64,000 nucleotides of DNA, taken from Acidobacteriota bacterium (GTDB lineage: Bacteria; Acidobacteriota; Terriglobia; Terriglobales; Acidobacteriaceae). Positions 482 to 17,670 of this stretch are shown in pieces. The notes below the pieces were generated by a model, which worked only from the letters and a program-made list of their open reading frames with translations, was not told the DNA's origin and ran no database searches. Where the stretch lies: contig JAJYVU010000005.1 of the NCBI GenBank assembly GCA_021791875.1, positions 1-64,000 of the forward strand, written 5' to 3'. The translations under genes were made by a program, and so were the position numbers. The first letter of the stretch is position 1; the number at the start of each line of letters is the position of its first letter.

Positions 482-907
482 CTACTGGTCTTCAACGATG
501 ACTAAACTCAATGCACCCTCAACAGCTCGCGCCACATCTTGAGGAGATTTCCGCTTCAACTTGTTAATGGTCTTACGGATTTCTACGTAATGAATCAATT
601 CGAGAATTTGCCCGGGAGTCAATCCGATCGCTGCTTCGCTCAATTTTGTATGGAGAGATAAAGGTTCGGCGCCGGGAATTAACGTTGCCACAGGAACACC
701 AAAGAAATGTGCAATCGCGTTGAGATCTCTTATCGATGGCCTAAAGTTGCCGCTTTCCCAGCGAGAAATGGTATTCGGCTTCGTATCGAGAGCCGCCGCT
801 AATTCCGATTGGCTCACGACGCGACCCTTTGCATTGGTTCGCACGTGGCGAATTGCTGCCCCCAATTCACGGTAAAAGGGAAGTGCTGGATCTTTCGATT
901 TGCGCAT
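482..907 (-). CDS. XRE-family transcriptional regulator
   Basis: A 141-residue protein with an N-terminal Cro/C1-type HTH at residues about 12 to 70. The pattern SQSELAAALDTKPNTISRWE is the canonical helix 2-turn-helix 3, followed by a third helix ending in the usual FFGVP-type sequence. The C-terminal half is helical and may serve dimerisation. Such proteins usually repress their own and neighbouring promoters in mobile elements. It is transcribed away from the transposition genes. The 440-bp gap upstream of it contains three phased GTATGGC repeats that could be its operator (inference). No toxin partner is visible next to it. Confidence 0.75.
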   Translation of the reverse strand: MRKSKDPALPFYRELGAAIRHVRTNAKGRVVSQSELAAALDTKPNTISRWESGNFRPSIRDLNAIAHFFGVPVATLIPGAEPLSLHTKLSEAAIGLTPGQILELIHYVEIRKTINKLKRKSPQDVARAVEGALSLVIVEDQ

Positions 908-1345: not shown

Positions 1346-1837
1346 ATGGGAAATAGCGGAAGGCCGAAAGCGATGGCTGCCAGAAGCCTGAATCTAAAGG
1401 AGACACAATTGAGCGAAAGTCAGTTTTTCAACCTAAGCGAGCCGCAAGGCAAAACGGGAATCATCAGGTTACCCGGGTTGGTGCAACTAGAACTTGTCAA
1501 CCAGGAATGGGTTCTGGAGAGTACGGTGATTGACACAATCTACTGCGGCAGTCCAGCGGCTGAGCCCCAGCGGCTATTTACGGTAATGGATTCCTATACC
1601 CGATCAATTATTGGAGCCAGGATTGCTCCGGGCCAAACGCTGAGCCTACTACGAATGCTAGATAGGCTGATCGGCCAACTTGGATGTCCAAAGGTCCTCC
1701 GGCTGCGCTGCGATCCCAAAATGCTGAGCATCGAGTACGAGAAATGGGCTAGCGAGCGAGGCATCACGCTTAATTACAATCCGCCGTTTAGACCACATAG
1801 ACTCGCCCGGAACTCGGGAGACAAGCGTGAACAATAG
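1346..1837 (+). pseudogene. truncated IS3-like transposase (rve/DDE) fragment
   Basis: This 163-residue frame resembles the central part of an IS3-family OrfB. NQEWVLESTVIDTIYCG aligns with the usual NqvWsmDfv region. LFTVMDSYTRSIIGARI matches the tVvDdfTRe strand. The second acidic block is degenerate (LRCDPKML in place of a DNGpEF-like motif), and the frame ends just after NPPFRP, before the catalytic glutamate. The zinc/HTH part is also missing. It overlaps the tnsA frame by 11 bp. It is most likely a dead IS copy; a domesticated DNA-binding fragment cannot be excluded. The similarity is by eye only. Confidence 0.5.
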
Positions 1838-2606
1838 CGAGATAAGAGGCGCACTTCCACCACTGACGGCAAGTCTCTGTGGAGATTCTGCACGCGTCTA
1901 CGGCCACTTATGGGAAGGTTGGTCAGCTGGGCCGATCGGCGGCATCAAGTGGATCCGAACCTGCTCGCGCGAACAAATCAGAATTCGCCGAATTATTAAA
2001 CGGGGAAGAATGCGTCCAACAGGAAAATTCTCAAGCTGGAAAAACAGCAGATATATGCATTGGGAATCACCTAACGAACGTAACGCGTTTACCACGCTCG
2101 ATTTCAGCCCGCAGGTCATTGCATATCGAGAGCAATCTTGTGAAATCGTATATGTCGACGACGATGGTAACGAGTGCAGACATTATCCAGACATTGAAGT
2201 CTTTGCTGTGAGTGGGTGCGAATTGTGGGAAGTGAAAACAAAGCATTACGCCGAGAGCAAGGACGTCAAACGCCGAACGGAGATCGTCTCCGAGTCGCTA
2301 GCCGCAATTGGAATTAAATATCGGATGGCGATCGCCGAGGAGTTGGGAAAGCAGCCACAACTTGGAACTATGGAGAAGGTCCTGCACTTTGCGCGGCGAC
2401 CAGTCTCAAGCGTGGAGCGAATTTGCTTAGCGCAGGAACTGAGCCAAATCGGCTGCATTACTTGGGCGCAGGCGTGTTCGGGACGTCTAGGGGCATACGG
2501 TCGAGAGATTATTTGCCGGCTTCTATTGGAGGGGTATCTTCAGATCGATTTGAATCTTCCATTCGGCCCAACAACCGAGTTCAATCTCGGCTCTAGAGGA
2601 TGGTGA
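1827..2606 (+). CDS. tnsA: TnsA-like transposon endonuclease
   Basis: TnsA cuts the 5' ends of the transposon and works with TnsB to give cut-and-paste movement. In this 259-residue frame the nuclease core is clear: ESPNER (residues 80 to 85), LDFSPQVIAYREQ, PDIEV with D122 and EVKTK with K137, which match the E-D-K catalytic pattern of TnsA. A winged-helix-like C-terminal half follows. The first 60 residues look non-conserved, so the true start may be the ATG at 2010, which is preceded by GGGGAAG. The stop is 1 bp before the tnsB GTG, so the two are translationally coupled. Presence of TnsA separates this element from Tn5053/Tn402 types, which lack it. Confidence 0.85.
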   Translation: MNNSEIRGALPPLTASLCGDSARVYGHLWEGWSAGPIGGIKWIRTCSREQIRIRRIIKRGRMRPTGKFSSWKNSRYMHWESPNERNAFTTLDFSPQVIAYREQSCEIVYVDDDGNECRHYPDIEVFAVSGCELWEVKTKHYAESKDVKRRTEIVSESLAAIGIKYRMAIAEELGKQPQLGTMEKVLHFARRPVSSVERICLAQELSQIGCITWAQACSGRLGAYGREIICRLLLEGYLQIDLNLPFGPTTEFNLGSRGW

Positions 2607-2607
2607 A

Positions 2608-4611
2608 GTGGGCGTCTTTCATATCCAAAAGAATACAGTTCTTGTCCTCGATGGTGTCCGCATGCGCATCAGGAAGAAGGTGCAGCAAGGCTCGGGCAAC
2701 AAGTGGCAGCTTGAAGAGACCGTATCTGGCTCCATTCAGCAAATGGATGAAGAGGAGCTATTCAGACTCCTTTGCAAGGGTAATTTACGAATCATCGGTG
2801 TCGGAAATCATCTCGAAGGGAAGACCACTCACCTCAAACTTACAGATGATGAGAAAGAGGAAATCAGTTGGCGTCTACCGTATGTCAAGGCCGTCTTAAG
2901 GTTACCGGCCACCCAATCGACCTTTGAAGCTACCATAGACGAGGTATGGAAGAAGTTCCAGAGTGGAGAATATCCGGCCAAAAGTCACTCTGGTTCTTCG
3001 ACGAAAATGAGACGCAGGAAAAAGCGTACGCGTCCTCCTGGATGGGTTTCCGTCTACAGGTGGAGGAACCGCTACGTGCGCGCGGGCCACGACGCTTACG
3101 CACTGCTAAATAAAGACAGGGATCGATCGGAGGACCATCATCCGGACTTCGAGCAGGCAATCGACGATGCGCTGGAAGAAGAATATCTAACCGATGAAAA
3201 GCAAGCTTTACAGGAGGCGGTAGACGCTGCAAAGACGAAGTGCAAGGAAAAGAATGAAGAAAATGAGCGTCTTGGATTAAAGCTTTTGGATATTCCAAGC
3301 CGCGCGGAAGTGCAGAAGCGATTGAAGAAGATGCCGGCTTTTGACGTGTATGCAGCGCGTTTTGGACGCGATGCCGCAAGGAACAAGTTTCGCTCTGTTG
3401 AAGGTCACACGGTTACGTCGGAGCCACTGGAACGAGCTGAAATCGACCATACTCCGTTAGATCTCTTCGTTGTTGATGAAGAACACGGCCTTCCTTTGGG
3501 CCGTCCGTACATTACAGCCTGCATCGACGATTTTACCCGCTGCATCCTCGGAATGTACGTCGGATTCGTTCCTCCCAGCTATCAATCGGTGGCACTATGC
3601 CTCAAGCACGCATTCCTGCCGAAAGTTACGCAGGCAGAAGACTATCCCGATATACAAAACTCTTGGTTCGCTTATGGAGTAATGCGTACATTAACATGCG
3701 ACAACGCCCCGGAATTCCACTCCGAACCGCTTGAGAACGGATGCAACCAACTCGGCATAAATCTGGAATATGCTCCGCGAAAGACTGGATGGCACAAAGC
3801 TAAGATCGAGCGACTTTTCAGGACTATGAACCAGCAAGTTGCTCATGGAACCAAAGGCACGACATTCAGCAACATCTTCGAGCGGGGAGATTATAACCCG
3901 GAGAAAAATGCGGTAGTCCGCCTGTCAACTCTCCAGCGTGGACTCCAAATGTGGGTGCGCGATATCTACCACCAGAAAAAGCACAGTGCTCTAAACATGC
4001 CACCGGAGACGATGTGGAAGCTCCACGCCAGGACGGAAGACATACGCGTTCCAGGGGACCGGAATAGCCTCCAAATTATCATGGGGCGTCCATATCCTCG
4101 AAGGCTGACTCATAAGGGAATTGAGTTTGCCGGACTCTACTATGGATCAGAAGCTGTACATGAGCTTCGTATGCAATATGGTTCGGTACTCGACGCTGAG
4201 ATCAGGGTGAATGAGGCGGATATTGGTGAGATACATGTGCTTTACGGTGGACAGATCGTTGTCGCCCGCGCTCTGAAATTTGAGTATGCCGAGGGCCTTA
4301 GCCTATGGCTCCACGAGCAGATCAAGAAACATAGTCCGAAATACGATCCAGATACTTGGCTCGCGGCTAAGCAGCGCTTGAAACGACTCTTCAGGGGTGA
4401 GCCTGGCGCTCTGGCAAAGTCCGGAAAACGTGGACGGGGGCGAGTGGCTGAGCAACTTGGACCAAAGGAAGTATCTGGCCCTAAGCCGATTCCGCAGCTT
4501 CCCGCGCCAGTGGTTACTCTCGAAGCCAGCGACTTTAATATTTCGTCTGAGATGACGGAAATACTAGATATCCCACGATACAGTGTGGTTCGCAATGGAG
4601 GTAGCAGCTAA
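2608..4611 (+). CDS. tnsB: TnsB-like DDE transposase
   Basis: TnsB binds the transposon ends, cuts the 3' strands and joins them to target DNA. The protein has 667 residues, close to Tn7 TnsB. The start is a GTG with AGAGGA 7 bp upstream. N-terminal DNA-binding parts occupy residues about 1 to 240, including WVSVYRWRNRYVRAGHDA. The rve catalytic core has D280 (AEIDHTPLD), D365 (TCDNAPEFH) and E401 (HKAKIERLF); the 35-residue D-E spacing is that expected for DDE integrases. A Mu-type C-terminal domain follows (residues about 470 to 550) and then a basic, proline-rich tail, which in the family contacts TnsC. It overlaps tnsC. All catalytic residues are present, so it appears functional. Confidence 0.93.
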   Translation: MGVFHIQKNTVLVLDGVRMRIRKKVQQGSGNKWQLEETVSGSIQQMDEEELFRLLCKGNLRIIGVGNHLEGKTTHLKLTDDEKEEISWRLPYVKAVLRLPATQSTFEATIDEVWKKFQSGEYPAKSHSGSSTKMRRRKKRTRPPGWVSVYRWRNRYVRAGHDAYALLNKDRDRSEDHHPDFEQAIDDALEEEYLTDEKQALQEAVDAAKTKCKEKNEENERLGLKLLDIPSRAEVQKRLKKMPAFDVYAARFGRDAARNKFRSVEGHTVTSEPLERAEIDHTPLDLFVVDEEHGLPLGRPYITACIDDFTRCILGMYVGFVPPSYQSVALCLKHAFLPKVTQAEDYPDIQNSWFAYGVMRTLTCDNAPEFHSEPLENGCNQLGINLEYAPRKTGWHKAKIERLFRTMNQQVAHGTKGTTFSNIFERGDYNPEKNAVVRLSTLQRGLQMWVRDIYHQKKHSALNMPPETMWKLHARTEDIRVPGDRNSLQIIMGRPYPRRLTHKGIEFAGLYYGSEAVHELRMQYGSVLDAEIRVNEADIGEIHVLYGGQIVVARALKFEYAEGLSLWLHEQIKKHSPKYDPDTWLAAKQRLKRLFRGEPGALAKSGKRGRGRVAEQLGPKEVSGPKPIPQLPAPVVTLEASDFNISSEMTEILDIPRYSVVRNGGSS

Positions 4612-5659
4612 GGTGATTGATCCGGAGAGTCTCTTGAACGTAACAATCATGCATGAAGCATTCGTCAACGCAGTGGAGCGGATCGAAAGGGCGCAAGCGC
4701 TTAAGGATCGGCGAGAGGACCCATGCTGTCTGGCGCTACTCGGCGAGTCTGGCTCCGGCAAAAGCTTTGTACTGGATAGGCTAGAAGAGAAAAATCCTTC
4801 AATAGAAACTGATGAAGGCACTTTGAAGCCAATTGTTCGTGCGTCAGTTCCATCTAAGCCGACAATCAAGAGTCTCGCTGAAGAGATAAAATCGCAACTG
4901 GACCCAAACGATACCCAAAAAAGGTACACGGAAAATGAACTTACAAGGCGTATTGCGGTCTTGATGGACGAGTGCGACACGGATGTGATTGTTCTGGACG
5001 AATTTCAGCACTTCTATGACAGGACCACCGAAACGGTGTGGGAACATGCTGCCGATTGGCTGAAGCGATTGATGGAAGTGAGGAAAAAAGCGAATCGAAC
5101 GAGAAGGATGCTTATTGTTTCAGGGTTAACGCAGTCGATGGACGTTATTCAGCAAAACAGCCAGTTGAAAAGGCGATTTAAGGCACCCCTGTTCCTTCCG
5201 TGCTATTCATGGACAAGCCCTAAGGAGAGGGCTCAGTTTGCCGCGTGCTACAACGGCTTCGCAGAAATTATCGGGCAGCATTTTGTAATGCCTGATGTCG
5301 AGAAGAACATGATGTACTTCCGTTCCTATTGCGCAACCGGAGGGTTAATCGGTTATCTCAAAGCGCTCATGCACGACGTTGTCGACGTAGCACTGAAAGA
5401 AAATAAGAAGAAACTAGAAGTGGAAGATTTCACAACTGCCTTCAATCAATTTCTCTTCTCGAATCCTGATCTTAAAGTAGGCTATCAACCATTTAGCAAG
5501 TCGTTCAACACTACCCCAACTGCATCTGTTCTCCAACAGGCATTCCTCATTGCTCACCCGCCTGCACTCGATAAAGGGAGAAAAATTTCGAGGACTACAA
5601 CCGCGTCACTCCCCGGCAACTCACTTGTTGCCAAGGAACTCGCCCAGATGGCGAGTTGA
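4595..5659 (+). CDS. tnsC: TnsC/TniB-like AAA+ transposition regulator
   Basis: TnsC is an ATPase that assembles on target DNA and links the target selector (TniQ) to the TnsAB transposase. This 354-residue protein shows Walker A GESGSGKS (residues 50 to 57), Walker B VIVLDE (131 to 136) followed by FQHFYDR, and a sensor region near IVSGLTQS, as in TniB/TnsC proteins. The chosen start is the ATG at 4595, giving a 17-bp overlap with tnsB; a GTG at 4583 is an alternative. It is followed directly by the first tniQ, whose possible TTG start overlaps this stop. Operon position and motifs make the call firm. Confidence 0.92.
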   Translation: MEVAAKVIDPESLLNVTIMHEAFVNAVERIERAQALKDRREDPCCLALLGESGSGKSFVLDRLEEKNPSIETDEGTLKPIVRASVPSKPTIKSLAEEIKSQLDPNDTQKRYTENELTRRIAVLMDECDTDVIVLDEFQHFYDRTTETVWEHAADWLKRLMEVRKKANRTRRMLIVSGLTQSMDVIQQNSQLKRRFKAPLFLPCYSWTSPKERAQFAACYNGFAEIIGQHFVMPDVEKNMMYFRSYCATGGLIGYLKALMHDVVDVALKENKKKLEVEDFTTAFNQFLFSNPDLKVGYQPFSKSFNTTPTASVLQQAFLIAHPPALDKGRKISRTTTASLPGNSLVAKELAQMAS

Positions 5660-5694
5660 GCGGACGGTCAATTCATGCGTTGGATGAGGAGTCT

Positions 5695-7548
5695 ATGAAG
5701 GACGCATCGGCCCAATTAGTAAGGCGTTCAAAGCCGCACTCTACTGAAAGTCTGATGGCATACTATCTGCGCATCAGCGAAGTGAACGGCTTCGAAACAC
5801 CATGGCATCTCTTCAAGCGTGCAGGTATGGATGCACATGAGTGGCGAACAAGGGGAGCAAGAACGGATAAGATCGCGATCATTGCAAAGTGCCGTAAAGA
5901 GCATCTTGATCGGATTGCCTACTCAACGAGAGATTCTGCGAGGCCATTTAGACTACTGGGCCATCCAGTCAACAGTACGGACATCGAGCCTGAACGGCCC
6001 AAGCTATGCCCTCAATGCGTGTACGAAAAGAAATTTGTAGAGGCGCATTGGGACCTGGCATATATGGTGGCGTGTCCGGTGCATTATCGCTGGGCGACTA
6101 CCGCCTGTTTAGCGTGTGGGAAGAGATTGAGCCTCTTCCGGAGAGGGTTGTTGATCTGTCATTGCGGTGCAACGCTGCAACACAGTAACGACACTGACAT
6201 CCCTCCTTCGCTAGGCTGCCTGCTCACAATCGTCAGGGCGCGAGTGTTGCCTCTTCTTCCTTTTGCAGACTTCGAGATAGGGCTTCCAGTGCTGGAGCTA
6301 CATCGACTTGAACTTCACACCTTGCTGCGCGTCATAGAGGTGGTCGGCCGTTGTGAACTAATCGCGTTAGGGAAAGACGTAAAAGAAGTTGCTGCGCAGG
6401 ATATTGTTTGCGCAGCAGCGGAAGTTCTGTCTACGTGGCCGAGCAATTTCAACAGATTATTGCAGGCACTGGCTATTCGAAACAAAAGCGCGAGAGGCAT
6501 TCGGGAGCAGTTTGCTCCCCTATACACTGCGTTATTGAAGCGAGGAAGAGGTGAGAGTCCAGGTTCTCTCGACTTCATCAGAGAGGCATTTCTGAGATTT
6601 GTGACCTACGAGTGGAATGGGCGCAGAGTCGATCCCCGGACGCTCCAGGAAGTAAGCACAAAGGTTGGTCGACTGTTTGTGAGCGGTAATGAACTCGCGC
6701 GGCGTTTGAATATAGATCCAAGAACAGTGAAGCGCCACGCAAAAATATATTCGCAGAAAATCACGCGGGGGCCTCAGTTGACATATGCGGTTAACACCGA
6801 CTGCGTATCAACGGATTTTCAATCAGCGCATAAGGTCATTCGGATCAGGCAAGCCGCGGCAGAAATTGGAATACCCGTTAATGTCTTGCGTGCGCTGAAA
6901 GAGTCGGGAGACTTTGAAGTGAAGCACCAGATGCCAATGCAAGCGGGATTTCGAGAAGCCGATGTAGTTGCATTCAAGAGCAGGATTTCTGCACTGGTGC
7001 CAACGGGTCCTCATTCTTCAGGTGTGGGAGATGTCGGGAGCCTTGGTACGTGCATGGCAGGATCGCGCTACTCAATTGGCGAGAAGATAACTGTGATTCG
7101 TAAAGTCTTGGATCGGTCGCTGCCGATTGTCGGGCAGAAGCATGATGGAGTGAAGGGGCTGATGGTGTCTTCGGCGGCTTTGTCGGCAATCATTAGAGGA
7201 GAAAGATCAACTATCCACGGTCCAGTAATGTCGGGAAAAGAAGCTGCAAAGGCGATAGGGTGTGAATTCGTGATCCTTTGTGAACTCGTTAAGGGCGGTG
7301 TTATCACAGGCGAAAAAACTGGCAAGCAGTGGAAAGTAGCGGTATCGTCGGTCGCTGAGTTTTGCAGAACTTACGTGTCATTGGCTGCGGTGGCCTCCGA
7401 GCTTATGACGACTTCCACCCGTCTAAGGAATCTTTGTCGCGAGGAGGGCATTCAAGTACTTATTGCGAAGAGAGCTAGCAAATCGCCACAACCGTTCATT
7501 CGTCTTTGTGATCGTTCCAAATTGGTCAGAAATGGGGAACGCTCATAG
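5695..7548 (+). CDS. tniQ: TniQ/TnsD-like target-selection protein 1
   Basis: TniQ proteins recognise the target site, directly (TnsD) or through a CRISPR complex, and recruit TnsC. The protein has 617 residues. The TniQ domain starts at ESLMAYYLRISE, followed by a zinc-binding array: C105/C108, C127/H130, C138/C141 and C155/C157. The remaining 450 residues contain at least three HTH-like segments (for example NELARRLNIDPRTVKRH and RQAAAEIGIPVNVLRAL), as in the long DNA-reading arm of TnsD. The ATG at 5695 has AGGAG upstream; a TTG at 5656 overlapping the tnsC stop is the alternative. Its length argues for direct DNA recognition rather than the short TniQ of type I-F CRISPR transposons. Confidence 0.88.
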   Translation: MKDASAQLVRRSKPHSTESLMAYYLRISEVNGFETPWHLFKRAGMDAHEWRTRGARTDKIAIIAKCRKEHLDRIAYSTRDSARPFRLLGHPVNSTDIEPERPKLCPQCVYEKKFVEAHWDLAYMVACPVHYRWATTACLACGKRLSLFRRGLLICHCGATLQHSNDTDIPPSLGCLLTIVRARVLPLLPFADFEIGLPVLELHRLELHTLLRVIEVVGRCELIALGKDVKEVAAQDIVCAAAEVLSTWPSNFNRLLQALAIRNKSARGIREQFAPLYTALLKRGRGESPGSLDFIREAFLRFVTYEWNGRRVDPRTLQEVSTKVGRLFVSGNELARRLNIDPRTVKRHAKIYSQKITRGPQLTYAVNTDCVSTDFQSAHKVIRIRQAAAEIGIPVNVLRALKESGDFEVKHQMPMQAGFREADVVAFKSRISALVPTGPHSSGVGDVGSLGTCMAGSRYSIGEKITVIRKVLDRSLPIVGQKHDGVKGLMVSSAALSAIIRGERSTIHGPVMSGKEAAKAIGCEFVILCELVKGGVITGEKTGKQWKVAVSSVAEFCRTYVSLAAVASELMTTSTRLRNLCREEGIQVLIAKRASKSPQPFIRLCDRSKLVRNGERS

Positions 7549-7565
7549 GACAATTGGAAGTTTTA

Positions 7566-9560
7566 ATGGATCGATCCAGTGGAGGTCGGCAGCCGAGAGG
7601 GAAGATGATTGTTACCGCACCCAGTAGAAATTTACCTCAGCAACGATTGCTCCCTGTGCGCCCGAAGCCACGAGACACGGAGAGTCTTTGCAAGTATGTC
7701 ATCAGAGTATCAGAGCGTAATGGCTTTAATTCACCAAGTTTTGTTCTCTCCAGAGCCCGAATAAAGGGTGGCTTGGGCGTTGGCATTGACGTCTCCAAAT
7801 TGGCGACCGTCACGGGTTGGAAGAAGAATTTGAAGAAAATCGAATACCGGTCAAAGGGTGCAGATTCAATTGAAAGCCGGATTCTTGGTCATTCGGTTCG
7901 GTCGGAAGATCTGGCCGTGAATGCGCAGAAAATGTGCCCTGAATGTGTCTTGGAGAATGGTTACGTAGAGGCTCACTTCGATCTGGCGGTGATGATTGCA
8001 TGCCCAGTCCACAGACGAATGCTGATACATGAGTGTGAATCGTGCGGGAATAGATTGGAGGCGCTGCGTCCAGGCCTTCTTGAATGTTCCTGCGGCGCTA
8101 GCCTGTCCGGTGTTCGTGGACCAGTTGCCCCTGTTGAATTGGTGGATCTTCTCGACATCATCCGACGTAAGGTTCTATCGCTTTCGCTTGATCAGCAGTA
8201 TTCGTCGCTCATTCCAGCTCGCGACCTTGGAGAGATGGAGCTTAAGACAATTCTTGGGTCAATTAATGCTCTTGGCCGGCATGGTGCGTCGAGTACGAAA
8301 TGTACGAAGCCTGACTTTGCTGGATTCGCGGTTCGTGAGGCATCTCGAATTCTCGCGCAATGGCCGGCTAGGTTTCTGGAGATGTTGTCCAAACTCGAAC
8401 CAGATGCATCGATTGACAATCCTGTTTATCTCAAGGCCAGCCGTATTCGGGGCCTATATGGAGCTCTTCGCAGGGCTGGAGCAAAATCAATAGCCGGTGC
8501 CACGGCTGAGTATGCGGCGCTACACTTTGGTCCGGGAGCGCGTAAAGAAATAACCTCTTGTCTCGGCAAGGATGGAATGCCCAGATATGTGAGCAAGAAG
8601 CGATTCGCAGAGATGTGTAAAGTGGATCCGAGGTGCGTGGATACAGTCTTAGAAAATAGAGGCATTCTGACTATCCAGATTCAATATGGCAAATGCACTA
8701 GGACTCTTGTTGACCTCAGCCAGCACGGCGTTCCACGAAAAATGCCTGGTCGCGTCTACCAACTGACGAATGCAGCCAAAGTTTTAGATATTCCAGTGTC
8801 GGTTCTTCGTAGGCTTCGTAACGAGGGAATCTATAAGTCAGCTCGATTGCCATCAGGCATGATTGGATTCCATGAGGGGGACGTCGCCGAATTTTATCAA
8901 GCGCTGCTCTCTCGTGGAGTCGCAGGTAGTCCAAGCGAAGGTTCTGTGCTTCGATTTGATCGGCTCATGAAAATGACAACTTTTCCAATTGAGGTAAAGA
9001 CCAGAGTGATTTCCAAGATTTTGTCGCGACAGATCGATGTTTTCGTATCTACTGATGGAACTCTTGGAGGGCTGCTCATTGAGCGTAAGAAGGTCGATTT
9101 GTGGACTCGCCGAGCGCAGGCTCTAAATTGTGGGCTGCTGACAGACACGGATGAGGACATTTGCGATCCTTCTACGCTGCCGATGACAACGCAAGAGGCT
9201 GCTCTTACTCTAGGCTGTCATCCACATACGGTGCATCAGCTAGCCATTCGTGGGATGCTGCCGGGGAAACCTGTCTGTAGAAGTTTCATATTTGACCGCA
9301 AAGTTGTAGAAGCCTTCAGCAAGCGGTATGTATTTCTCACCTTGCTTGCGCGCAACATACCAACAACCGCTCATGGGCTTAGGTGCCTGGCGCGAAAGCG
9401 TGGTTTCTGGACAGACAGTATCGCATGTAAGAGTTTGGGATTGAATCAGGCTTTTATCCGCGCTAAAGATGCCCAGCAGCTATTGCATTTAGCAACCGAA
9501 TTACTTGGGTGGGAAAATCGAAATAACCGGAAAAGTCTCTCGAGATCTGGTTTGTGGTAG
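7566..9560 (+). CDS. tniQ: TniQ/TnsD-like target-selection protein 2
   Basis: This is a second, full-length TniQ/TnsD paralogue (664 residues), 17 bp after the first. The layout is the same: a TniQ motif (TESLCKYVIRVSERNGF), zinc ligands C124/C127, C146/H149, C157/C160 and C174/C176, and a long C-terminal arm with HTH-like segments (VLDIPVSVLRRLRNEG; EAALTLGCHPHTVHQLA). The N-terminal zinc part is clearly similar to protein 1, while the C-terminal arms differ much more, which suggests that the two read different target sequences. The start is the ATG at 7566 with GGAAG 5 bp upstream; a TTG at 7554 is also possible. Two selectors in one element is known for Tn7-like elements with dual targeting. 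Confidence 0.87.
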   Translation: MDRSSGGRQPRGKMIVTAPSRNLPQQRLLPVRPKPRDTESLCKYVIRVSERNGFNSPSFVLSRARIKGGLGVGIDVSKLATVTGWKKNLKKIEYRSKGADSIESRILGHSVRSEDLAVNAQKMCPECVLENGYVEAHFDLAVMIACPVHRRMLIHECESCGNRLEALRPGLLECSCGASLSGVRGPVAPVELVDLLDIIRRKVLSLSLDQQYSSLIPARDLGEMELKTILGSINALGRHGASSTKCTKPDFAGFAVREASRILAQWPARFLEMLSKLEPDASIDNPVYLKASRIRGLYGALRRAGAKSIAGATAEYAALHFGPGARKEITSCLGKDGMPRYVSKKRFAEMCKVDPRCVDTVLENRGILTIQIQYGKCTRTLVDLSQHGVPRKMPGRVYQLTNAAKVLDIPVSVLRRLRNEGIYKSARLPSGMIGFHEGDVAEFYQALLSRGVAGSPSEGSVLRFDRLMKMTTFPIEVKTRVISKILSRQIDVFVSTDGTLGGLLIERKKVDLWTRRAQALNCGLLTDTDEDICDPSTLPMTTQEAALTLGCHPHTVHQLAIRGMLPGKPVCRSFIFDRKVVEAFSKRYVFLTLLARNIPTTAHGLRCLARKRGFWTDSIACKSLGLNQAFIRAKDAQQLLHLATELLGWENRNNRKSLSRSGLW

Positions 9561-9762: not shown

Positions 9763-12720
9763 TCATGCTCCGATCTCTTGATGTGTAGGCCCCGCGTTAT
9801 ACGTTGCGGCAAAGTTTGACTCTGCCAACCACTTCTTGAATGCAGGGTTGTCGCTGAACTGCTTAAACAGTTCTGAGTAGTCTGCGAGCAGCCCTACTAC
9901 TACTCCCTCCAACGCCTTGTCGTGCTCGATTCGGGCATTTTGACGGTCGGAGTTCTTCATTGCGTTTTGGTACGCCTTGTTGGCGGAGACCTTCTCGGGA
10001 ATCTCCTCGGTGATCGCCCGCCTAATCCTGTCAACGTCTTTCCAGTCGATATTTCCAAACTGCTCATTGAACGTCTTGAGAATGTTGGACAGCCTATCGA
10101 GCTCAGGCTCTGGCTTATGTCCTCCACCGGCGGTCGGTACCGGTTCAATTTCGGAATCGCTGTCGGGGAGCGCAATGGAAATGGATTGCTGCTTCTCCAC
10201 GCGATAGCTGTCCATATCAATGGTCTCGATCAGACCCTTCGAGAGGTCTTCTTCCTTCGGGGCAGGGAGCTTAGGGATCAGGCAGTTGAGCAATATGGAA
10301 AGCTTCTCCCAGGCGGCATTGTTGTAGGGCAGCACCGCGGAGAGGAATCCATAGGTGCGTACAAATGCCTTTGCATTGCCCTTGAAGCTTACCTGTCCGT
10401 CTTCGTCGAGATCACTCAAATAAGTGGCGACACAGGCGTCGAGGATTGCATCGAGCTTTTCCCGGGCAGAGCTCGCAAGAAACAGCTCGGCAAACGACTC
10501 TGTCTGATCGGGACTGTAGACTTGTGCATTATCGAGATTTGCTTTCAGATCGTGCAGCTTGTTGGGATCTGTTTCCTCGCTGAGGATCGTAGTGCGATAG
10601 TAGTCGGCGAAAGCCTTCTGGACGGTGTCTGTGTCGTTGATGAAGTCGAGGACAAAGGTGTCGTACTTGCGCGGGTGGGCGCGATTGAGCCGGGACAGAG
10701 TTTGGACGGCTTTGATCCCGGATAGCTGCTTGTCCACGTACATGGTGTGGAGCAACGGTTCGTCGTAGCCGGTCTGGAACTTCTCGGCCACGATCAGGAA
10801 GCGATAGGGATCAGTCTTGAACAGCTTCTCAATCTGGCTGCTTGGAAAGCCGTTCAGGCTTGATTCCGTAACCTTCACGCCCTTGTATTCGTGTTCTCCA
10901 GAGAATGCCACGATTGCCTTGTAGGGGCTGTTGATTTCGTTCAGATATTCCTGAAATGCGTGAAAGTATTGGATCGCCCGTTGAATGCCACTGGTGATGA
11001 CCATCGCCCGGGCCTGTCCGCCAATCTTCAGCTTGGCGATGACCTGTTCCTGGAAATGATCCACCATGATTTCGGCTTTCTGGCGGATGGCGTGGTCGTG
11101 ACTCTCCACGTACCTGCGTAGCTTCTTTTGGGCCTTTTTGGTGTCGAATTCCGGGTCGTCTTCGATCTTCTTCATCAAGCGGTAGTAGCTTTGGACCGGC
11201 GTATAGTCCTTCAATACGTCAAGGATGAAGCCCTCCTGAATAGCTTGCTTCATCGTGTAGCTGTCAAAAGGGCGGTGCTTCACCTTGTCGCCTGATGGAA
11301 CCGGCTCGCCAAAAATCTCCAGTGTTTTGTTTTTAGGGGTGGCGGTGAAGGCAAAGTAGCTCGCATTGGGAAGCATCTTGCGGGCTTCCATAATGCGGAT
11401 GATCTTATCTTCGGTCGACTCTTCTTCTTCCTCTGCAGCGTTTTCCGCAAGCGCAATGTTCATCTTTGCGGCGGTTCGGCCCCCCTGGCTGGAGTGCGCT
11501 TCGTCAATGATGATGGAGAAGCGGTTCTCGCGATGCTCGTTGCCGATGTCGTCCAGGATGAACGGGAACTTTTGGACGGTGGTAATGATGATCTTCTTCC
11601 CGTCGCGCAGAAACTTGCGCAGGTCGCCGGAGTGCTCCGCGTGGCCAACGGTGGCTTGGACTTGTGCGAAGTGCCTTATCGTCTCTCTGATCTGGCGGTC
11701 CAGGACGCGGCGATCTGTGACGACAATGACGGAGTCGAAGACCTTCTTGTGTTCTCTTTCGATGTCGATGAGCTGGTGTGCGAGCCATGCAATCGTGTTG
11801 CTTTTGCCGCTGCCCGCCGAGTGCTGGATCAAATAGCGCTTGCCCGCTCCGCGATCTTTGGCATCGGCAAGCAGGCGGTGCACCGCCCTGAGCTGGTGGT
11901 ATCGCGGAAAGATTTGCTTGCGCCTCTTCTTTCCCTTGTCGTCGACTTCTTCAATGATTTCGGTGAAGTTTTCGAGTAGGTCGGTCAGCCCCGGTTTTGC
12001 GAGTATTTCTTTCCAGAGGTAATCGGTCTTCAGGCCGTTCGGGTTCGGCGGGTTGCCAGCATCGTCTTTGTGGCCTTTGTTGAACGGCAGGAACCATGAT
12101 GCCTTGTCTTTCAGGTGAGTGCAGAACCGGACTTCCTGATCGTCTACGGCAAAGTGGGCGATACAACGGCCAAACTGAAACAGCAGTTCGCGCGAGTCGC
12201 GATCGCGCTTGTACTGCTGGACTGCATCTTCGACGGTTTGTTTGGTGAGGCTGTTCTTCAGTTCAAAGGTGGCGATGGGCAGGCCGTTGATAAAGATGCC
12301 GAGATCGAGCGCAAGCTGGGTATCGTCCTTGCTGTAGCGAAGCTGGCGGGTCACGCTGAAGATGTTGGCCGCGTACTGCTGGAGGGCCTTCGCATTGCCC
12401 GGCGACGGCGTGCCATAGAAGAGTTGCACGGTGCAGGAGAGATGATTGACGCCTTTGCGAAGGACTTCAATAATGCCGCGCTTTGCGATTTCACCCTGCA
12501 AGCGGTTGAGAAATTTGTCGCGGTTTGGGCCTTCGACGCCGATGCCGAGGCGCTCAACGACTTCCGGCTGCGTAGCGCTGAGGAAGGCCATTAGCTTGAC
12601 GGTGTCGACGGCGTGCTCGCGGTCGAAGTCCTTTGGATCACCGGCGACGTATGCGGCGTCCTCAATCAAGGAGGAGACGATGAGTGTCTCCAGGCCCTTC
12701 TCGCTGATATCAGTCGGCAT
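9763..12720 (-). CDS. hsdR: type I restriction enzyme R subunit
   Basis: HsdR is the motor and nuclease of a type I restriction complex. It cuts unmodified DNA after ATP-driven translocation. This 985-residue protein has the N-terminal PD-(D/E)xK nuclease core (LDLGIFINGLPIATFELKN, with D139, E153 and K155). Two helicase lobes follow with Walker A (SAGSGKSNT), the DEAH box (IIIDEAHSSQGG), FAFTATPKN, and motif VI-like QTLSRLNRAHP. The C-terminal helical part would bind HsdM. The start ATG has AGGAGA upstream. It is the last gene of the hsdM-hsdS-PLD-hsdR operon, 13 bp after the PLD gene. All motifs appear intact, so the system is probably active. Confidence 0.93.
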   Translation of the reverse strand: MPTDISEKGLETLIVSSLIEDAAYVAGDPKDFDREHAVDTVKLMAFLSATQPEVVERLGIGVEGPNRDKFLNRLQGEIAKRGIIEVLRKGVNHLSCTVQLFYGTPSPGNAKALQQYAANIFSVTRQLRYSKDDTQLALDLGIFINGLPIATFELKNSLTKQTVEDAVQQYKRDRDSRELLFQFGRCIAHFAVDDQEVRFCTHLKDKASWFLPFNKGHKDDAGNPPNPNGLKTDYLWKEILAKPGLTDLLENFTEIIEEVDDKGKKRRKQIFPRYHQLRAVHRLLADAKDRGAGKRYLIQHSAGSGKSNTIAWLAHQLIDIEREHKKVFDSVIVVTDRRVLDRQIRETIRHFAQVQATVGHAEHSGDLRKFLRDGKKIIITTVQKFPFILDDIGNEHRENRFSIIIDEAHSSQGGRTAAKMNIALAENAAEEEEESTEDKIIRIMEARKMLPNASYFAFTATPKNKTLEIFGEPVPSGDKVKHRPFDSYTMKQAIQEGFILDVLKDYTPVQSYYRLMKKIEDDPEFDTKKAQKKLRRYVESHDHAIRQKAEIMVDHFQEQVIAKLKIGGQARAMVITSGIQRAIQYFHAFQEYLNEINSPYKAIVAFSGEHEYKGVKVTESSLNGFPSSQIEKLFKTDPYRFLIVAEKFQTGYDEPLLHTMYVDKQLSGIKAVQTLSRLNRAHPRKYDTFVLDFINDTDTVQKAFADYYRTTILSEETDPNKLHDLKANLDNAQVYSPDQTESFAELFLASSAREKLDAILDACVATYLSDLDEDGQVSFKGNAKAFVRTYGFLSAVLPYNNAAWEKLSILLNCLIPKLPAPKEEDLSKGLIETIDMDSYRVEKQQSISIALPDSDSEIEPVPTAGGGHKPEPELDRLSNILKTFNEQFGNIDWKDVDRIRRAITEEIPEKVSANKAYQNAMKNSDRQNARIEHDKALEGVVVGLLADYSELFKQFSDNPAFKKWLAESNFAATYNAGPTHQEIGA

Positions 12721-12733
12721 CCATTCTCTCCTG

Positions 12734-13708
12734 TCAGCTACGCGTCAAAAGCGAGGCGTCTTCTCCGAGTACATCCAGCAGGTTCATCGTAAAGTCGCGA
12801 TTCTTGATTTGTTGATCTTTCCGCAAGTCTTTCATGGGGCAGCCAAGGGCCTCAGCGACCGATCGCAGGGGCTTGCGCCTTCGATCCGGTCTTTCCAGGT
12901 AAACGAAGGAGACTTGTCTTCTGCCGATCTTCTGGGGCGGCTCAACGTGGTATACGGTGGCAGGGGGCGTTACCAGGACTTTTTTCTTGTTGTCTTCATA
13001 GACCTGGATGATTACGTCGCCTCTTTGGTAAGGGTTTTTCCTCGTCCAAATGAATTCTTCCTGTATCCAGCTTCGGGGATGTTTTCGGTATTTTTTACCC
13101 GCTTCGAAGCCTTGGTCGCTACATTCCTGCTCTTCTTCCGAGTAGTCCACGTCTTGAAGTTGTGCAAGAAAGAGGCGAGGGAGCGTTGGATTGTTGCTTT
13201 TTTTTCGAGGTGTTCGTTTGCTGCCAGTACCGCCGGGGACTCCGAAGCCGGTTGGAGGTTGGTAGATTTTGTTTAGCTGCTCCAAGGCTTCGGGGCCGAG
13301 TTCTATGTAGTGCAAGCTCTCCACAAACTCGCGGGCAGCCTTAACGACGCCGGGGTCTGTTGTGCGGACCACGGCTTCTTTCCAGTAATTGGCAGAGTTT
13401 CTGGATACATTCGCTGAGCCGATGAAGGCTGTTTTCCCAACGACGAAGACCTTCGCGTGTAACTTGGGCTCGCTGAAGATGCGTACGCCGCGATTGTGCA
13501 ACTTGTTGAGGTCTGCGGGACAGGTTTCGCCTCTCTTCACCACCGATTCACTTGCATTGACAACCAGGCGGCTGCCTGCAAGGAGTGGTAACTGGCGGCT
13601 TGCTCCCTCGCTGAAGTACGCCACTGCAACGTGGCATGGCCGTTGGGCCGCGCGTACCGCCCTGGTGATCTCCGGCCAGATGCCGTCGCTGAGGAACTCA
13701 GTCGGCAT
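12734..13708 (-). CDS. PLD-like phosphodiesterase domain protein in hsd operon
   Basis: A 324-residue protein. Residues about 100 to 125 carry one HKD-like motif (HAKVFVVGKTAFIGSANVS), the signature of phospholipase D-superfamily nucleases and phosphodiesterases. One motif implies a dimeric active site. The C-terminal 150 residues are charged and unassigned. The ATG has GAGGA 5 bp upstream and overlaps the end of hsdS by 11 bp; hsdR follows after 13 bp, so it is an integral member of the operon. PLD-family proteins do occur beside restriction genes. Its role here (extra nuclease, repair or RM accessory) is unknown. Confidence 0.7.
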   Translation of the reverse strand: MPTEFLSDGIWPEITRAVRAAQRPCHVAVAYFSEGASRQLPLLAGSRLVVNASESVVKRGETCPADLNKLHNRGVRIFSEPKLHAKVFVVGKTAFIGSANVSRNSANYWKEAVVRTTDPGVVKAAREFVESLHYIELGPEALEQLNKIYQPPTGFGVPGGTGSKRTPRKKSNNPTLPRLFLAQLQDVDYSEEEQECSDQGFEAGKKYRKHPRSWIQEEFIWTRKNPYQRGDVIIQVYEDNKKKVLVTPPATVYHVEPPQKIGRRQVSFVYLERPDRRRKPLRSVAEALGCPMKDLRKDQQIKNRDFTMNLLDVLGEDASLLTRS

Positions 13709-15035
13709 CGGAATCCTCTCCGGCTGCTAATAACTCCTCGGCCTCTTCGAGTTCGCCCTCCTCTGAATCACTGAGCGGTTCGAGAGCGTCTTCTGGTTCC
13801 AGTTCCGGCAGTTCCACACCGCGTACGTCTAGCTTGCCAGTGACGACATCAGCGATGAGGCGGGTGCGGTATTCGCGGAGGCGGTCAATCTGAAATTGAA
13901 CTGACTGGGTGACCTTTTCGAAATGGTTGAGTTGGTCCGCCACCTGTGCAGCTATCGATGGTTGTTCTCTGAGCGGAGGGATAGCGACTGGAATTTCATA
14001 AAGGTCCTTACGATCTACACCAGGCACGGCTGATTTTGATCCAAGGTCAACCTTTGAAATGACCCGAAGAAGGTAATAACACCAGCGCGGATCATTGCCT
14101 TGGAAGTTCGTCACAAAAAGGGCCGTATTATGGGGCCAGAACTCTTCTTCCAGATAGAACACAGAATCCGTCGATCCGTAGCGGCCCATCACTACTCCGG
14201 GCGCTATGGCACGCGCTTCACTGTGAGTATCTATGATTCCCCCCGAGGAAACGACGGGAATGGTGCCTTGGAGCCGTCGATCGCTTGGCAAGTCGTAGCC
14301 CCGCTGCAAGCGTGTGACCCATTTAAGCCTCTTCACCGACCAATGCTCAGGAATATCTCCGAGCCAGTCGATGCCGGAGGGTTTTAGGGGGACGTTGGGA
14401 TCGAGGCCACGGGTTACTGCTCGATGGATGATGGCCTGCTTCTGCTCGTTCAGCAACTCGATCACCCGCCGCTTAGCCCGGATTAAGTGATTGATTTTTG
14501 CAATTGCAAATCTGAGAAAGCCTCCGATTTTCTCTTGCGTCTCAATTGGAGGCACCGGTAGTTCGGTATTGCAAAGCTTGTTGTAGTCAATGTTCTGTCC
14601 CTCCCGAATACCGGTCACATAGAGAGTCAGTGCGTCAACAAATGGCTTCGACTTGAAAAAGAATTCAAAATAATCGCGCTTTGCTATATCACCGGGGCAT
14701 AACACCGTGTAGGCGGGGCTAATGATGCCACGGTAGTGGGCGTATTCAATTCCGCCTTCGAAAGACCTGAGGCTGATGACGTAATCCCCTTGTTTAACAA
14801 GCTTCAACAGGTGCAAATCCTTCATAGCCACAACGGTTCGGTTTTCGTAAAGCGACTTCGGCACGACGCCCATGGTTTGGGTTGCGGCCAAGAGTGGCTC
14901 ATCCGGATAACCCTTTTGAACTCTTTCTGAAAAAAGGTACTTCATCTTCAGGAGTTCCCAATCGTCTGGAATCGCATCCATCCAGGGTACGTTCGTCGTC
15001 TTGTACGCTGGATACGGTCTCAGTCTTATGCTCAC
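13698..15035 (-). CDS. hsdS: type I restriction-modification specificity subunit S
   Basis: HsdS recognises the two-part DNA target for the HsdM methyltransferase and HsdR. The 445-residue protein shows the expected two-fold layout. TRD 1 (residues about 10 to 165) ends at LPVPPIETQEKIGGFL and is followed by a coiled-coil spacer. TRD 2 starts near IDWLGDIPEHWSVKRLKWV and ends with VAIPPLREQPSIAAQV and a second helical spacer. The tail is strongly acidic. The GTG start overlaps the hsdM stop (GTGA), so the two are translationally coupled. The target sequence cannot be predicted from the sequence by eye. Confidence 0.92.
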   Translation of the reverse strand: MSIRLRPYPAYKTTNVPWMDAIPDDWELLKMKYLFSERVQKGYPDEPLLAATQTMGVVPKSLYENRTVVAMKDLHLLKLVKQGDYVISLRSFEGGIEYAHYRGIISPAYTVLCPGDIAKRDYFEFFFKSKPFVDALTLYVTGIREGQNIDYNKLCNTELPVPPIETQEKIGGFLRFAIAKINHLIRAKRRVIELLNEQKQAIIHRAVTRGLDPNVPLKPSGIDWLGDIPEHWSVKRLKWVTRLQRGYDLPSDRRLQGTIPVVSSGGIIDTHSEARAIAPGVVMGRYGSTDSVFYLEEEFWPHNTALFVTNFQGNDPRWCYYLLRVISKVDLGSKSAVPGVDRKDLYEIPVAIPPLREQPSIAAQVADQLNHFEKVTQSVQFQIDRLREYRTRLIADVVTGKLDVRGVELPELEPEDALEPLSDSEEGELEEAEELLAAGEDSDAD

Positions 15036-17173
15036 TGAGCTGCCCTCATCGCCAAAAGAACTTGATCTAGCAGTCCCTCGGTCTCGCGTTCGATGGCTTC
15101 AATGTCAGCGCGAATTTCTTCGAGTGTGCGCAATGGCTGTGGCTTGTAGAAGTAGCGGGTGAAGGAGATTTCGTAGCCGATCTTGGTCGCGTTGGCGTCC
15201 ACCCAGGCGTCGGGCACATGCGGCAAGACCTCCCGACGAACAAAGGCCTGGATACCGCCTTCTTCCAGCAGTGGAACCTGCTCTGTGTCTCGCAGGTCGG
15301 TGTCCGGCTCATACTCCACAACGTGCTCTTTGCCCTGAAGGGTGATTTGATACCTGCCGTGCAGCGGGTCTGGTTGGGCTTTGCCGGGCTTGTGCAGCTT
15401 TTTGATGACCGGTTGTGCGCTTTCATCCTTGACGGCCAATGCCGACTGGATGAGCTTGCGCCGCTTGGCCGAGAGCTTGAAGTCGCGAGCGTCAGCAAGA
15501 GCTTCGAACTTCTCGGAGAAGAGGTTGAAGTCGTTGTGCGGCCCAGTTCCGATCTCGTCTGTAACCTGTTCCAGAAATGCTGCCAGAGGCGCTTCCGACG
15601 CATCGGTACAGGCCATGCGGAAGTGCGTGAGACGTTCTTTGGTGAGTTCGACCTTGAGCCGGAGCGGACGCTCGACCGTGATTTTCCAGTAGCCGAATGC
15701 CTCGTTGGGGAAGATTTTGGATTGCTCGTTCTCTTCGAAGTTGAGGAACGTGTCCAGAATGCGGCGTATGTTTTCGGGGGAGAGTTCGCAGTTCTTTTTG
15801 CCTAGATTCTTGCGGAGGGGTTGAAACCACTTGGTGGCGTCGATCAACTGCACTTTGCCCCGGCGATGGGTTGGCTTGCGGTTGCTGAGCACCCAGATAT
15901 AGGTGGCAATGCCGGTGTTGTAGAACATGTTGAGCGGGAGCGCGATGATCGCTTCCAGCCAGTCGTTTTCGAGAATCCAGCGGCGGATGTTGCTTTCACC
16001 CTGGCCCGCGTCACCGGTGAAGAGAGATGAGCCGTTGTGCACCTCGGCAATGCGGCTGCCGAGGGGCGTGTCCTCTTTCATCTTGGAAAGCTTGTTGACG
16101 AGGAAGAGAAGCTGCCCGTCTGAAGAGCGCGGCAGGAGGTTGAATTCGGAGTCATCGGCGTGAGTGATGATGAAGCGCGGATCGCTGATCCCGTCCTTGC
16201 CGCCCATCCGTTCGAGGTCAGTTTTCCAGCTCTTTCCGTAGGGAGGGTTGGAGAGCATGAAGTCGAAGCGCCGTGCCCGGAATCCGTCCTGGGAGAGGGT
16301 GGACCCATAGATGACGTTCTCGGCTTCGCCGCCCTCGCCTTGGAGCAGAAGATCGGCTTTGGTGATGGCGTAGGTTTCCGGGACGGTTTCCTGGCCGTAC
16401 AGGTGAATCGAGACTTCCTTGTCGTGCTCCTGCGCCAGTTCCTGCAGGCGTTCCTGGGCGATGGTGAGCATGCCGCCGGTTCCGCAGGCTCCGTCATAGA
16501 CGAGATAGGTGCCGGATTCGATTTGGTCGGCGATGGGGAGCAGGATGAGGTCGGCCATGAGCTTGACCACGTCTCGCGGGGTGAAGTGCTCTCCGGCTTC
16601 TTCGTTGTTCTCCTCGTTGAAGCGGCGGATGAGCTCCTCGAAGATGGTGCCCATTGCGTGGTTGTCGAGAGCGGGAAGCTTCTCCTGGCCGTTGCCGTCG
16701 TAGATGGGCTTGGGGCTGAGATTGATGCTGGAGTCGAGGAACTTTTCGATGATGCCGCCGAGGATGTCAGCGTCGACGAGGGTTTGAATCTGGTTGCGGA
16801 ACTTGAACTTGTCGAGAATCTCCTGGACGTTGGGGGAGAAGCCGTCGAGGTAGGCTTCAAAGTCAGCTTTGAGCTGCTGCTGCCGGGCGCGGGATTTGAG
16901 GTCGCGCAGGGTGAATTTCGAAGTGTTGTAGAAGGCCTGTCCAGATGCCTGGTTGAGCGCTGCGTGTTGATTGGCAATTTTAGCGGCGTCCAGGTTCTCC
17001 TTCATCTTGAGCACGGATTGCTTTGTCGGCTCGAGAATGGCGTCAAGCCGCCGGATGACCGTCATGGGCAGAATTACATCTCGGTATTTGCCGCGCACAT
17101 AGACGTCCCGGAGCACGTCGTCCGCGATGCCCCAGATAAAGTTCGCAATCCAGTTCAAATCACTGTTCGCCAC
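15032..17173 (-). CDS. hsdM: type I restriction-modification DNA methyltransferase M subunit
   Basis: HsdM is the N6-adenine methyltransferase that protects host DNA and forms the core of the restriction complex. The protein has 713 residues, longer than the common ~500. The N-terminal HsdM helical domain (residues 1 to 170) precedes the methyltransferase fold with the AdoMet motif DGACGTGGML and the catalytic NPPYGKSW. The extra C-terminal part includes a segment near residues 600 to 700 (LEEGGIQAFVRREVLPHVPD) common in large M subunits. The start is GTG with AGGAG 9 bp upstream. It is the first gene of the operon, whose promoter should lie between 17174 and 17480. Confidence 0.93.
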   Translation of the reverse strand: MANSDLNWIANFIWGIADDVLRDVYVRGKYRDVILPMTVIRRLDAILEPTKQSVLKMKENLDAAKIANQHAALNQASGQAFYNTSKFTLRDLKSRARQQQLKADFEAYLDGFSPNVQEILDKFKFRNQIQTLVDADILGGIIEKFLDSSINLSPKPIYDGNGQEKLPALDNHAMGTIFEELIRRFNEENNEEAGEHFTPRDVVKLMADLILLPIADQIESGTYLVYDGACGTGGMLTIAQERLQELAQEHDKEVSIHLYGQETVPETYAITKADLLLQGEGGEAENVIYGSTLSQDGFRARRFDFMLSNPPYGKSWKTDLERMGGKDGISDPRFIITHADDSEFNLLPRSSDGQLLFLVNKLSKMKEDTPLGSRIAEVHNGSSLFTGDAGQGESNIRRWILENDWLEAIIALPLNMFYNTGIATYIWVLSNRKPTHRRGKVQLIDATKWFQPLRKNLGKKNCELSPENIRRILDTFLNFEENEQSKIFPNEAFGYWKITVERPLRLKVELTKERLTHFRMACTDASEAPLAAFLEQVTDEIGTGPHNDFNLFSEKFEALADARDFKLSAKRRKLIQSALAVKDESAQPVIKKLHKPGKAQPDPLHGRYQITLQGKEHVVEYEPDTDLRDTEQVPLLEEGGIQAFVRREVLPHVPDAWVDANATKIGYEISFTRYFYKPQPLRTLEEIRADIEAIERETEGLLDQVLLAMRAAQ

Positions 17174-17575: not shown

Positions 17576-17628
17576 TCGACTTTCATTTTGATCGTTCGAA
17601 CTTTCATCCAAATGGCTCGAACTTTCAT
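17576..17628. repeat. three 21-bp-phased repeats, candidate TnsB sites
   Basis: CTTTCAT recurs at 17580, 17601 and 17622, exactly 21 bp apart, within the fuller unit TCGAACTTTCAT (the first copy lacks one A). Read inward from 17646 the order is TGTGCGTTG, then three units each containing ATGAAAG and ending TCGA. Abutting ~20-bp TnsB sites starting 8 to 9 bp from a TGT terminus are the usual build of Tn7-family ends. IS21-family ends also carry repeats, so a remnant IS is the alternative. Confidence 0.6.
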
Positions 17629-17670
17629 TTTCGGCGGCAACGCACAGCGAAGCCGCGGTTGCCCCTCTGG

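What the first reader, a model, noticed from the sequence alone, without database searches (positions are those of the whole stretch)
1827..9560. Tn7-like transposition operon with two tandem full-length TniQ/TnsD selectors
tnsA, tnsB, tnsC and two tniQ genes follow each other on one strand with overlaps or gaps of a few bases. The key residues of TnsA (E, D122, K137), TnsB (D280, D365, E401) and TnsC (Walker A and B) are all present. Two TniQ-type proteins in one element are known from dual-pathway elements such as type I-B CRISPR-associated transposons, but no cas gene or CRISPR array is in this window and both proteins are long like TnsD. This may be an undescribed Tn7-like lineage with two protein-guided targets. 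Operon and motifs are seen; the dual-target reading is inferred.
Basis: partly seen in the sequence, partly recalled or inferred. Interest (0 to 1): 0.75.

Follow-up and report, generated by a model that had tools for sequence, protein, structure and literature searches.

The report
Tn7-like transposon homing beside nrdJ
This is a Tn7-type jumping element of soil Acidobacteria that carries two different targeting proteins and a restriction system; comparison with relatives shows that its lineage lands just after the gene nrdJ (vitamin-B12-dependent ribonucleotide reductase), a landing site we could not find described, while the job of the second targeting protein is still unknown.

Summary
In detail: tnsA, tnsB, tnsC and two full-length tniQ genes lie in tandem at 1827-9560, with intact active sites and zinc fingers. 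The two TniQ proteins are 30% identical, old in-situ paralogues. The same pair, in swapped order, occurs in Granulicella sp. S190; a third acidobacterial element has one long and one short TniQ. Nearly all other relatives have one TniQ. No CRISPR array or cas5 was found, so there is no sign of a CAST. Dual TniQ/TnsD loci are already known (about 1,000 in Faure 2023), so the tandem is not new in kind. New here is the landing site. I mapped the element's right end to 17646, 24 bp past the nrdJ stop codon. Equivalent ends lie 23-31 bp past nrdJ in about a dozen Acidobacteriaceae and eight proteobacterial relatives. One complete 43.8-kb element has a perfect 5-bp target duplication there. No paper found links Tn7-like elements to ribonucleotide reductase. 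TniQ1 resembles the single selectors of nrdJ-inserted relatives and is the likely nrdJ selector. TniQ2 is more diverged; a second target is inferred, not shown. The left end is off the contig. Verdict: a new variant of a known kind, with a new attachment site.

The parts
482..907 (-). divergent XRE-family regulator gene upstream of the tns operon
   Evidence: HTH_3 E=3.7e-11; homologues sit divergently upstream of tnsA in 7 other acidobacterial Tn7-like loci
1346..1837 (+). IS3-type transposase fragment (rve domain cut before the catalytic E); probably an insertion-sequence remnant, not a conserved part
   Evidence: rve E=1e-7, IS3 model E=1.5e-5 at 24.5 of 160 bits; no homologue in relatives' upstream regions
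1827..2606 (+). tnsA
2608..4611 (+). tnsB
4583..5659 (+). tnsC (TniB-like AAA+ ATPase)
5656..7548 (+). tniQ1, 630 aa, TniQ core plus C-terminal winged-helix domains; likely nrdJ selector
7554..9560 (+). tniQ2, 668 aa, diverged paralogue; function inferred to be a second selector
9763..17173 (-). cargo: type I restriction-modification (hsdM 15032-17173, hsdS 13698-15035, PLD protein 12734-13708, hsdR 9763-12720)
17577..17646 (-). right end of the transposon: terminal TGTGCG with outermost base 17646 and three TnsB-box repeats (ATGAAAGT) at 21-bp spacing
   Evidence: homology to the empty site of genome G001 begins exactly at 17647
17647..17651 (.). expected 5-bp target duplication (GCGAA on +, TTCGC on the nrdJ strand); the second copy is off the contig
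   Evidence: by analogy with the verified duplication GCTTC in G065
17671..20928 (-). nrdJ (class II, B12-dependent ribonucleotide reductase): attachment-site gene; stop codon 17671-17673, 24 bp from the transposon end

Best explanation
A Tn7-like cut-and-paste transposon (TnsA+TnsB transposase, TnsC ATPase, two TniQ-type selectors, XRE regulator, type I restriction-modification cargo) inserted 24 bp downstream of the stop codon of nrdJ. Shown: the genes, the right end, the same end position beside nrdJ in about 20 genomes of two phyla, and one complete relative with both ends and a target duplication. Inferred: a TniQ protein binds the conserved zinc-ribbon-coding 3' end of nrdJ with its C-terminal winged-helix domains and recruits TnsC and TnsAB, which insert the element with its dense end nearest nrdJ at a fixed distance, leaving nrdJ intact (as TnsD does at glmS). 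TniQ1, closest to the single selectors of nrdJ-inserted relatives, most likely does this. TniQ2 is an old duplicate kept beside it and most likely gives access to a second target, perhaps one used for spread (about 45% for this last step alone).
For: Genes and active sites. Right end beside nrdJ in window, S190, G065, G090; homology to the empty nrdJ site of the same-genus genome G001 starts at exactly the first base outside the end. G065: element 437073-480886, 43.8 kb, dense end at nrdJ, sparse end far, GCTTC on both sides. S190: left-type end on another contig flanked by CCCCT, matching AGGGG at its nrdJ end. Family-wide scan for nrdJ 3' end followed by a transposon end: 12 of 398 genomes, none with the reversed pattern; G038 is probably chance. 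An nrdJ-independent scan for three-box ends: 14 genomes, 11 of them at nrdJ. Proteobacterial relatives L037, L041, L043, L044, L048, L049, L061, L112 have ends 23-31 bp after nrdJ. TniQ tree: all seven acidobacterial TniQ form one clade; Q2 of window and S190 100/100, Q1 100/98. Profiles of nrdJ-linked TniQ score Q1 above Q2 in the C-terminal part: 190 vs 105 bits in window, 170 vs 136 in S190. Both fold as TniQ core plus winged-helix domains.
Against: No experiment. The window's left end and second target-duplication copy are missing, so its full extent is unknown. No insertion of this end type at a second target was found, so the dual-target step rests on paralogy alone. Q1 also scores above Q2 against other single TniQ, some of which may be nrdJ-linked too, so slower evolution explains part of the difference. 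In the window the tns operon faces the nrdJ-side end, opposite to G065 and S190. The S190 region is a tandem of two elements whose internal junction (AAAAA) does not fit simple insertion, and its scaffold holds an N gap.
Confidence: 0.75

Rival explanations
1. TniQ1 and TniQ2 act together at one site: a TniQ1-TniQ2 heterodimer (or two sequential binders) recognises nrdJ, and there is no second target.
For: TniQ works as a dimer in type I-F3 CASTs (established knowledge); all TGTGCG-type dense ends found (window, S190 twice, G818) lie at nrdJ or in tandem there; the pair is kept together in window and S190.
Against: Relatives with a single TniQ insert at the same site, so a second protein is not needed there; Q2 diverges faster (Q1 41% vs Q2 31% identity between window and S190). 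Chromosome sampling would miss plasmid targets.
Confidence: 0.25
2. TniQ2 is a redundant or decaying duplicate without a function of its own.
For: Longer branches for Q2; single-TniQ relatives are the rule; the duplicate in G065 is only 297 aa.
Against: The open frame is intact over 668 codons with all zinc ligands and a confident fold; an orthologue is kept in S190 although TnsB has diverged to 55% and the gene order is swapped.
Confidence: 0.15
3. It is a CRISPR-associated transposon whose cas genes lie beyond the contig start, with one TniQ serving the Cascade.
For: TnsB is nearest among solved structures to I-F3 CAST TnsB, and the best TniQ matches are I-F3 TniQ; parE-targeting I-F3 elements have two TniQ (PMC11406308).
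Against: No Cas5 anywhere in the G000, G296 or G065 assemblies, no CRISPR repeats in the contig or the relatives' elements; both TniQ have TnsD-like long C-termini whereas Cascade-binding TniQ are about 400 aa or less; the complete relative G065 carries DISARM and Wadjet, with no cas gene seen. Cas5 family PF09704 may not cover every subtype, and the assembly is 93% complete.
Confidence: 0.03

Closest known systems
Tn7 (TnsD pathway at glmS)
   Same: TnsA+B+C plus a TniQ/TnsD selector; end boxes bound by TnsB, TGT...ACA termini, 5-bp duplication; insertion about 25 bp past the 3' end of a conserved gene, dense end next to it
   Different: Attachment gene is nrdJ, not glmS; TnsB only distantly related (E=5e-30); two long TniQ, no tnsE seen; XRE regulator
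Tn7017/EasCAST-type I-F3 elements with dual TniQ (parE attachment site)
   Same: Closest TnsB and TniQ relatives among solved structures are I-F3; dual TniQ; XRE regulators (RtaC/RtbC) also occur in I-F3 (PMC11406308)
   Different: No Cascade or CRISPR found; both TniQ long; target nrdJ
Dual tniQ-tnsD Tn7-like loci without Cascade (Faure et al. 2023, PMC10293859)
   Same: In-situ duplicated TniQ/TnsD pair in a tnsABC operon, including cases with two tnsD
   Different: There one protein is usually substantially smaller; no nrdJ site is mentioned in the main text searched
Single-TniQ nrdJ-located relatives (Rubrivivax, Roseateles, Undibacterium, Methylotenera, Azospirillum, found here)
   Same: Same TnsB superclade, same end design, same attachment gene
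   Different: One TniQ only (split into two frames in Undibacterium)

Membership tests
Tn7-like transposon | tnsB (DDE) with tnsC ATPase and tniQ/tnsD in one operon | tested here: met
Tn7-like transposon | separate tnsA endonuclease with conserved catalytic residues | tested here: met
Tn7-like transposon | arrays of TnsB-binding repeats inside TGT...ACA ends | tested here: met
   right end in the window; both ends in G065
Tn7-like transposon | 5-bp target-site duplication | tested here: inconclusive
   left end missing in the window; met in relative G065, GCTTC
Tn7-like transposon | insertion at a fixed distance from the 3' end of a conserved gene | tested here: met
   23-31 bp after the nrdJ stop in about 19 genomes of two phyla
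Dual tniQ-tnsD locus (Faure 2023) | two intact tniQ/tnsD genes beside tnsC, related to each other by in-situ duplication | tested here: met
CRISPR-associated transposon | cas effector genes and a CRISPR array in the element | tested here: not met
   no Cas5 in the assembly, no repeats, no Rfam CRISPR match; the unseen left part of the element could not be read
Tn5053/Tn402 family | lacks tnsA; carries a resolvase and res site | tested here: not met
   tnsA present and intact
Tn6022 family | tnsF (orf3) beside a short tniQ, insertion in comM | tested here: not met
   long TniQ pair and nrdJ site; no tnsF-like gene between tniQ2 and the cargo

The most novel reading that the evidence does not exclude
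A two-address, purely protein-guided Tn7-like lineage: TniQ1 homes to nrdJ while the equally long paralogue TniQ2 recognises a second, different DNA target (chromosomal or plasmid), so that one transposase serves two protein selectors without any CRISPR or TnsE component.
Probability: 0.4. Interest if true: 0.7.

Novelty: new variant of a known kind. Interest (0 to 1): 0.55.

Why it matters
Attachment sites of Tn7-like elements named in the papers read are few: glmS, yhiN, comM, parE, guaC, yciA, ffs, rsmJ and tRNA genes (PMC11406308). A lineage that homes to nrdJ in both Acidobacteriota and Proteobacteria adds a new safe landing site and a new protein-DNA recognition pair, and marks nrdJ as an island site for defence cargo (type I restriction-modification here, DISARM and Wadjet in a relative). 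The dual-TniQ members sit among single-TniQ relatives with the same site, which makes the open question of how a second selector evolves directly testable.

Tried and rejected
Looked for direct and inverted repeats in the first 1.9 kb and across 1-22 kb: no usable ends. Looked for the window's left end in the own assembly with a degenerate end pattern: only the right end and chance-level matches. Considered the IS3-like ORF 1346-1837 as a conserved extra component: no homologues beside tnsA in relatives, so it is probably an insertion-sequence remnant. Considered Undibacterium L041 as dual TniQ: its second frame matches only the C-terminal half of a TniQ, so it is one split gene. Considered class I NrdA hits in L040 and L052 and RNR hits in L078-L080 as attachment sites: no transposon end follows. 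Took G090 first as evidence tying a single TniQ to nrdJ: its tns contig is not joined to the nrdJ contig and is 99.9% identical to a contig of another genus, so it is not used for that. L040 and L052 were first put in the nrdJ-TniQ profile and removed in the repeat. Literature search for nrdJ or ribonucleotide reductase with Tn7-like elements: nothing relevant; supplementary tables could not be read.

Full report
What was checked. The window is bases 1-64000 of a 119-kb contig (G000:C30) and starts at the contig's first base. ORFs and Pfam confirm tnsA, tnsB, tnsC, tniQ1 and tniQ2 at 1827-9560. Active-site residues are invariant in family alignments (TnsB; TnsA). A TnsB profile hits I-F3 CAST TnsB best among solved structures (E about 1e-106 to 1e-113), then V-K (1e-51), I-B (2e-33) and Tn7 (5e-30). 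The genome has exactly these two TniQ.

The two TniQ. They align over their whole length at 30% identity. A genome-contig scan with the TnsB alignment gave 80 loci; nearly all with a tniQ have a single one. The window's closest relative, Granulicella sp. S190 (TnsB 55%), has the same two types in swapped order: window TniQ1 with the S190 second protein 41%, window TniQ2 with the S190 first protein 31%. G065 has a 640-aa TniQ and a 297-aa one without a C-terminal part. In a maximum-likelihood tree all seven acidobacterial TniQ form one clade (97/90) inside a 39-row clade of mostly proteobacterial single TniQ; the Q2 pair is 100/100 and the Q1 pair 100/98. This is an in-situ duplication older than the window/S190 split, kept since then. 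AlphaFold models of both (mean pLDDT 82 and 81) show a TniQ core matching I-F3 TniQ and I-B TnsD, followed by winged-helix (MerR/Xis-like) domains.

Where it is inserted. The gene next to the element in the window is nrdJ, class II ribonucleotide reductase. In S190 and G065 the tns operon also lies within 30 kb downstream of nrdJ. Sequences right after the nrdJ stop hold three TGAAAGT-type boxes at 21-22-bp spacing behind TGTGCG or TGTGGG. In G065 the other end is found 43.8 kb away, with four sparser boxes, inverted, and GCTTC flanks both ends: a complete element at 437073-480886, 27 bp past the nrdJ stop. In the window the end's outermost base is 17646, 24 bp past the nrdJ stop codon, and homology to the same-genus genome G001, which lacks an insertion there, begins exactly at 17647. 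In S190 the nrdJ-side flank AGGGG is matched by CCCCT before a left-type end at the end of another contig. The dense end lies next to the attachment gene, as the Annual Review notes for Tn7-like elements (PMC11406308).

How general it is. A pattern joining the nrdJ 3' coding end to a transposon end matches 12 of 398 Acidobacteriaceae genomes, and the reversed control matches none; 11 of the 12 show real box arrays on inspection. A scan for three-box ends that does not ask for nrdJ finds 14 genomes: 11 at nrdJ, two 10-11 bp after a Sel1-repeat gene, one 8 bp after a metallo-beta-lactamase-fold gene. Eight proteobacterial relatives (Rubrivivax, Undibacterium, Mitsuaria, Roseateles twice, Methylotenera, Arenimonas, Azospirillum) have ends 23-31 bp after nrdJ. 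So nrdJ is the attachment gene of this TnsB clade in two phyla. Several genomes have the end but no TniQ at all, as expected for decayed or cargo-only elements. Occupancy varies: most sampled genomes show no such end at nrdJ.

What the second TniQ does. Profiles of TniQ from nrdJ-linked relatives score Q1 above Q2, above all in the C-terminal recognition part (window 190 vs 105 bits; S190 170 vs 136), but other single TniQ show the same direction, more weakly in the window (167 vs 123), and some of those may also be nrdJ-linked, so general rate differences contribute. TniQ1 as nrdJ selector and TniQ2 as a second selector is the reading I prefer. Joint action at nrdJ is the main rival.

Not a CAST as far as can be tested. 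No CRISPR repeats in the contig or the relatives' elements, no Rfam CRISPR match, no Cas5 in G000, G296 or G065. The G065 cargo is a class 1 DISARM and a Wadjet system; the window's cargo is a type I restriction-modification system with a PLD protein.

Other parts. The divergent XRE gene 482-907 has homologues in the same place in seven loci of a different acidobacterial Tn7-like clade and is a plausible transposition regulator (inferred from position and from the XRE regulators of I-F3 elements, PMC11406308). ORF 1346-1837 is an IS3-type fragment and not conserved.

Literature. Faure 2023 (PMC10293859) reports 998 dual tniQ-tnsD loci, including two tnsD, arisen repeatedly by in-situ duplication, usually with one small partner. 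Attachment genes named in the review are glmS, yhiN, comM, parE, guaC, yciA, ffs, rsmJ and tRNA genes. Searches combining Tn7-like with nrdJ or ribonucleotide reductase found no relevant paper in the open library; subscription papers and supplements were not searchable.

Verdict. A new variant of a known kind: an ordinary Tn7-like core with a conserved long-long TniQ pair and, as the more useful finding, an attachment site I could not find described.

Noticed in passing
L028 (G065:C10:437181-437766): A C-terminal fragment of GyrA (194-aa frame, named from its sequence only) lies just inside the right end of the complete G065 element.
   Followed up: no
L190 (G732:C79:4607), L191 (G712:C14:377512), L199 (G038:C468:3468): Three-box transposon ends of the same design lie 8-11 bp after the stop codons of a Sel1-repeat gene (two genomes) and a metallo-beta-lactamase-fold gene (named from sequence): possible further attachment sites of related elements. 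No TniQ is left in these genomes.
   Followed up: partly
L148/L150/L151 (G296:C34:106585-121219): In Granulicella S190 two elements are stacked in tandem at nrdJ, abutting across 5 bp (AAAAA); the junction does not fit two simple insertions.
   Followed up: partly
L163/L171 (G818:C116): Two right ends of different types (TGTGGG and TGTGCG) are stacked directly after nrdJ.
   Followed up: no
L206 (G823:C146) and L019 (G090:C276): A 2.9-kb tnsC-tniQ stretch is 99.9% identical in genomes of two genera whose nrdJ is about 76% identical: recent transfer or shared bin contamination.
   Followed up: partly
window 482-907 (-): The XRE gene beside tnsA is shared with a different acidobacterial Tn7-like TnsB clade (L020, L065, L073-L076, L105), so regulators seem to move between clades.
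   Followed up: partly
L144 (G296:C34:120822-120876): A second array of three CATAAGYTGTCAT repeats lies inside the element nearest nrdJ in S190; its owner is unknown.
   Followed up: no
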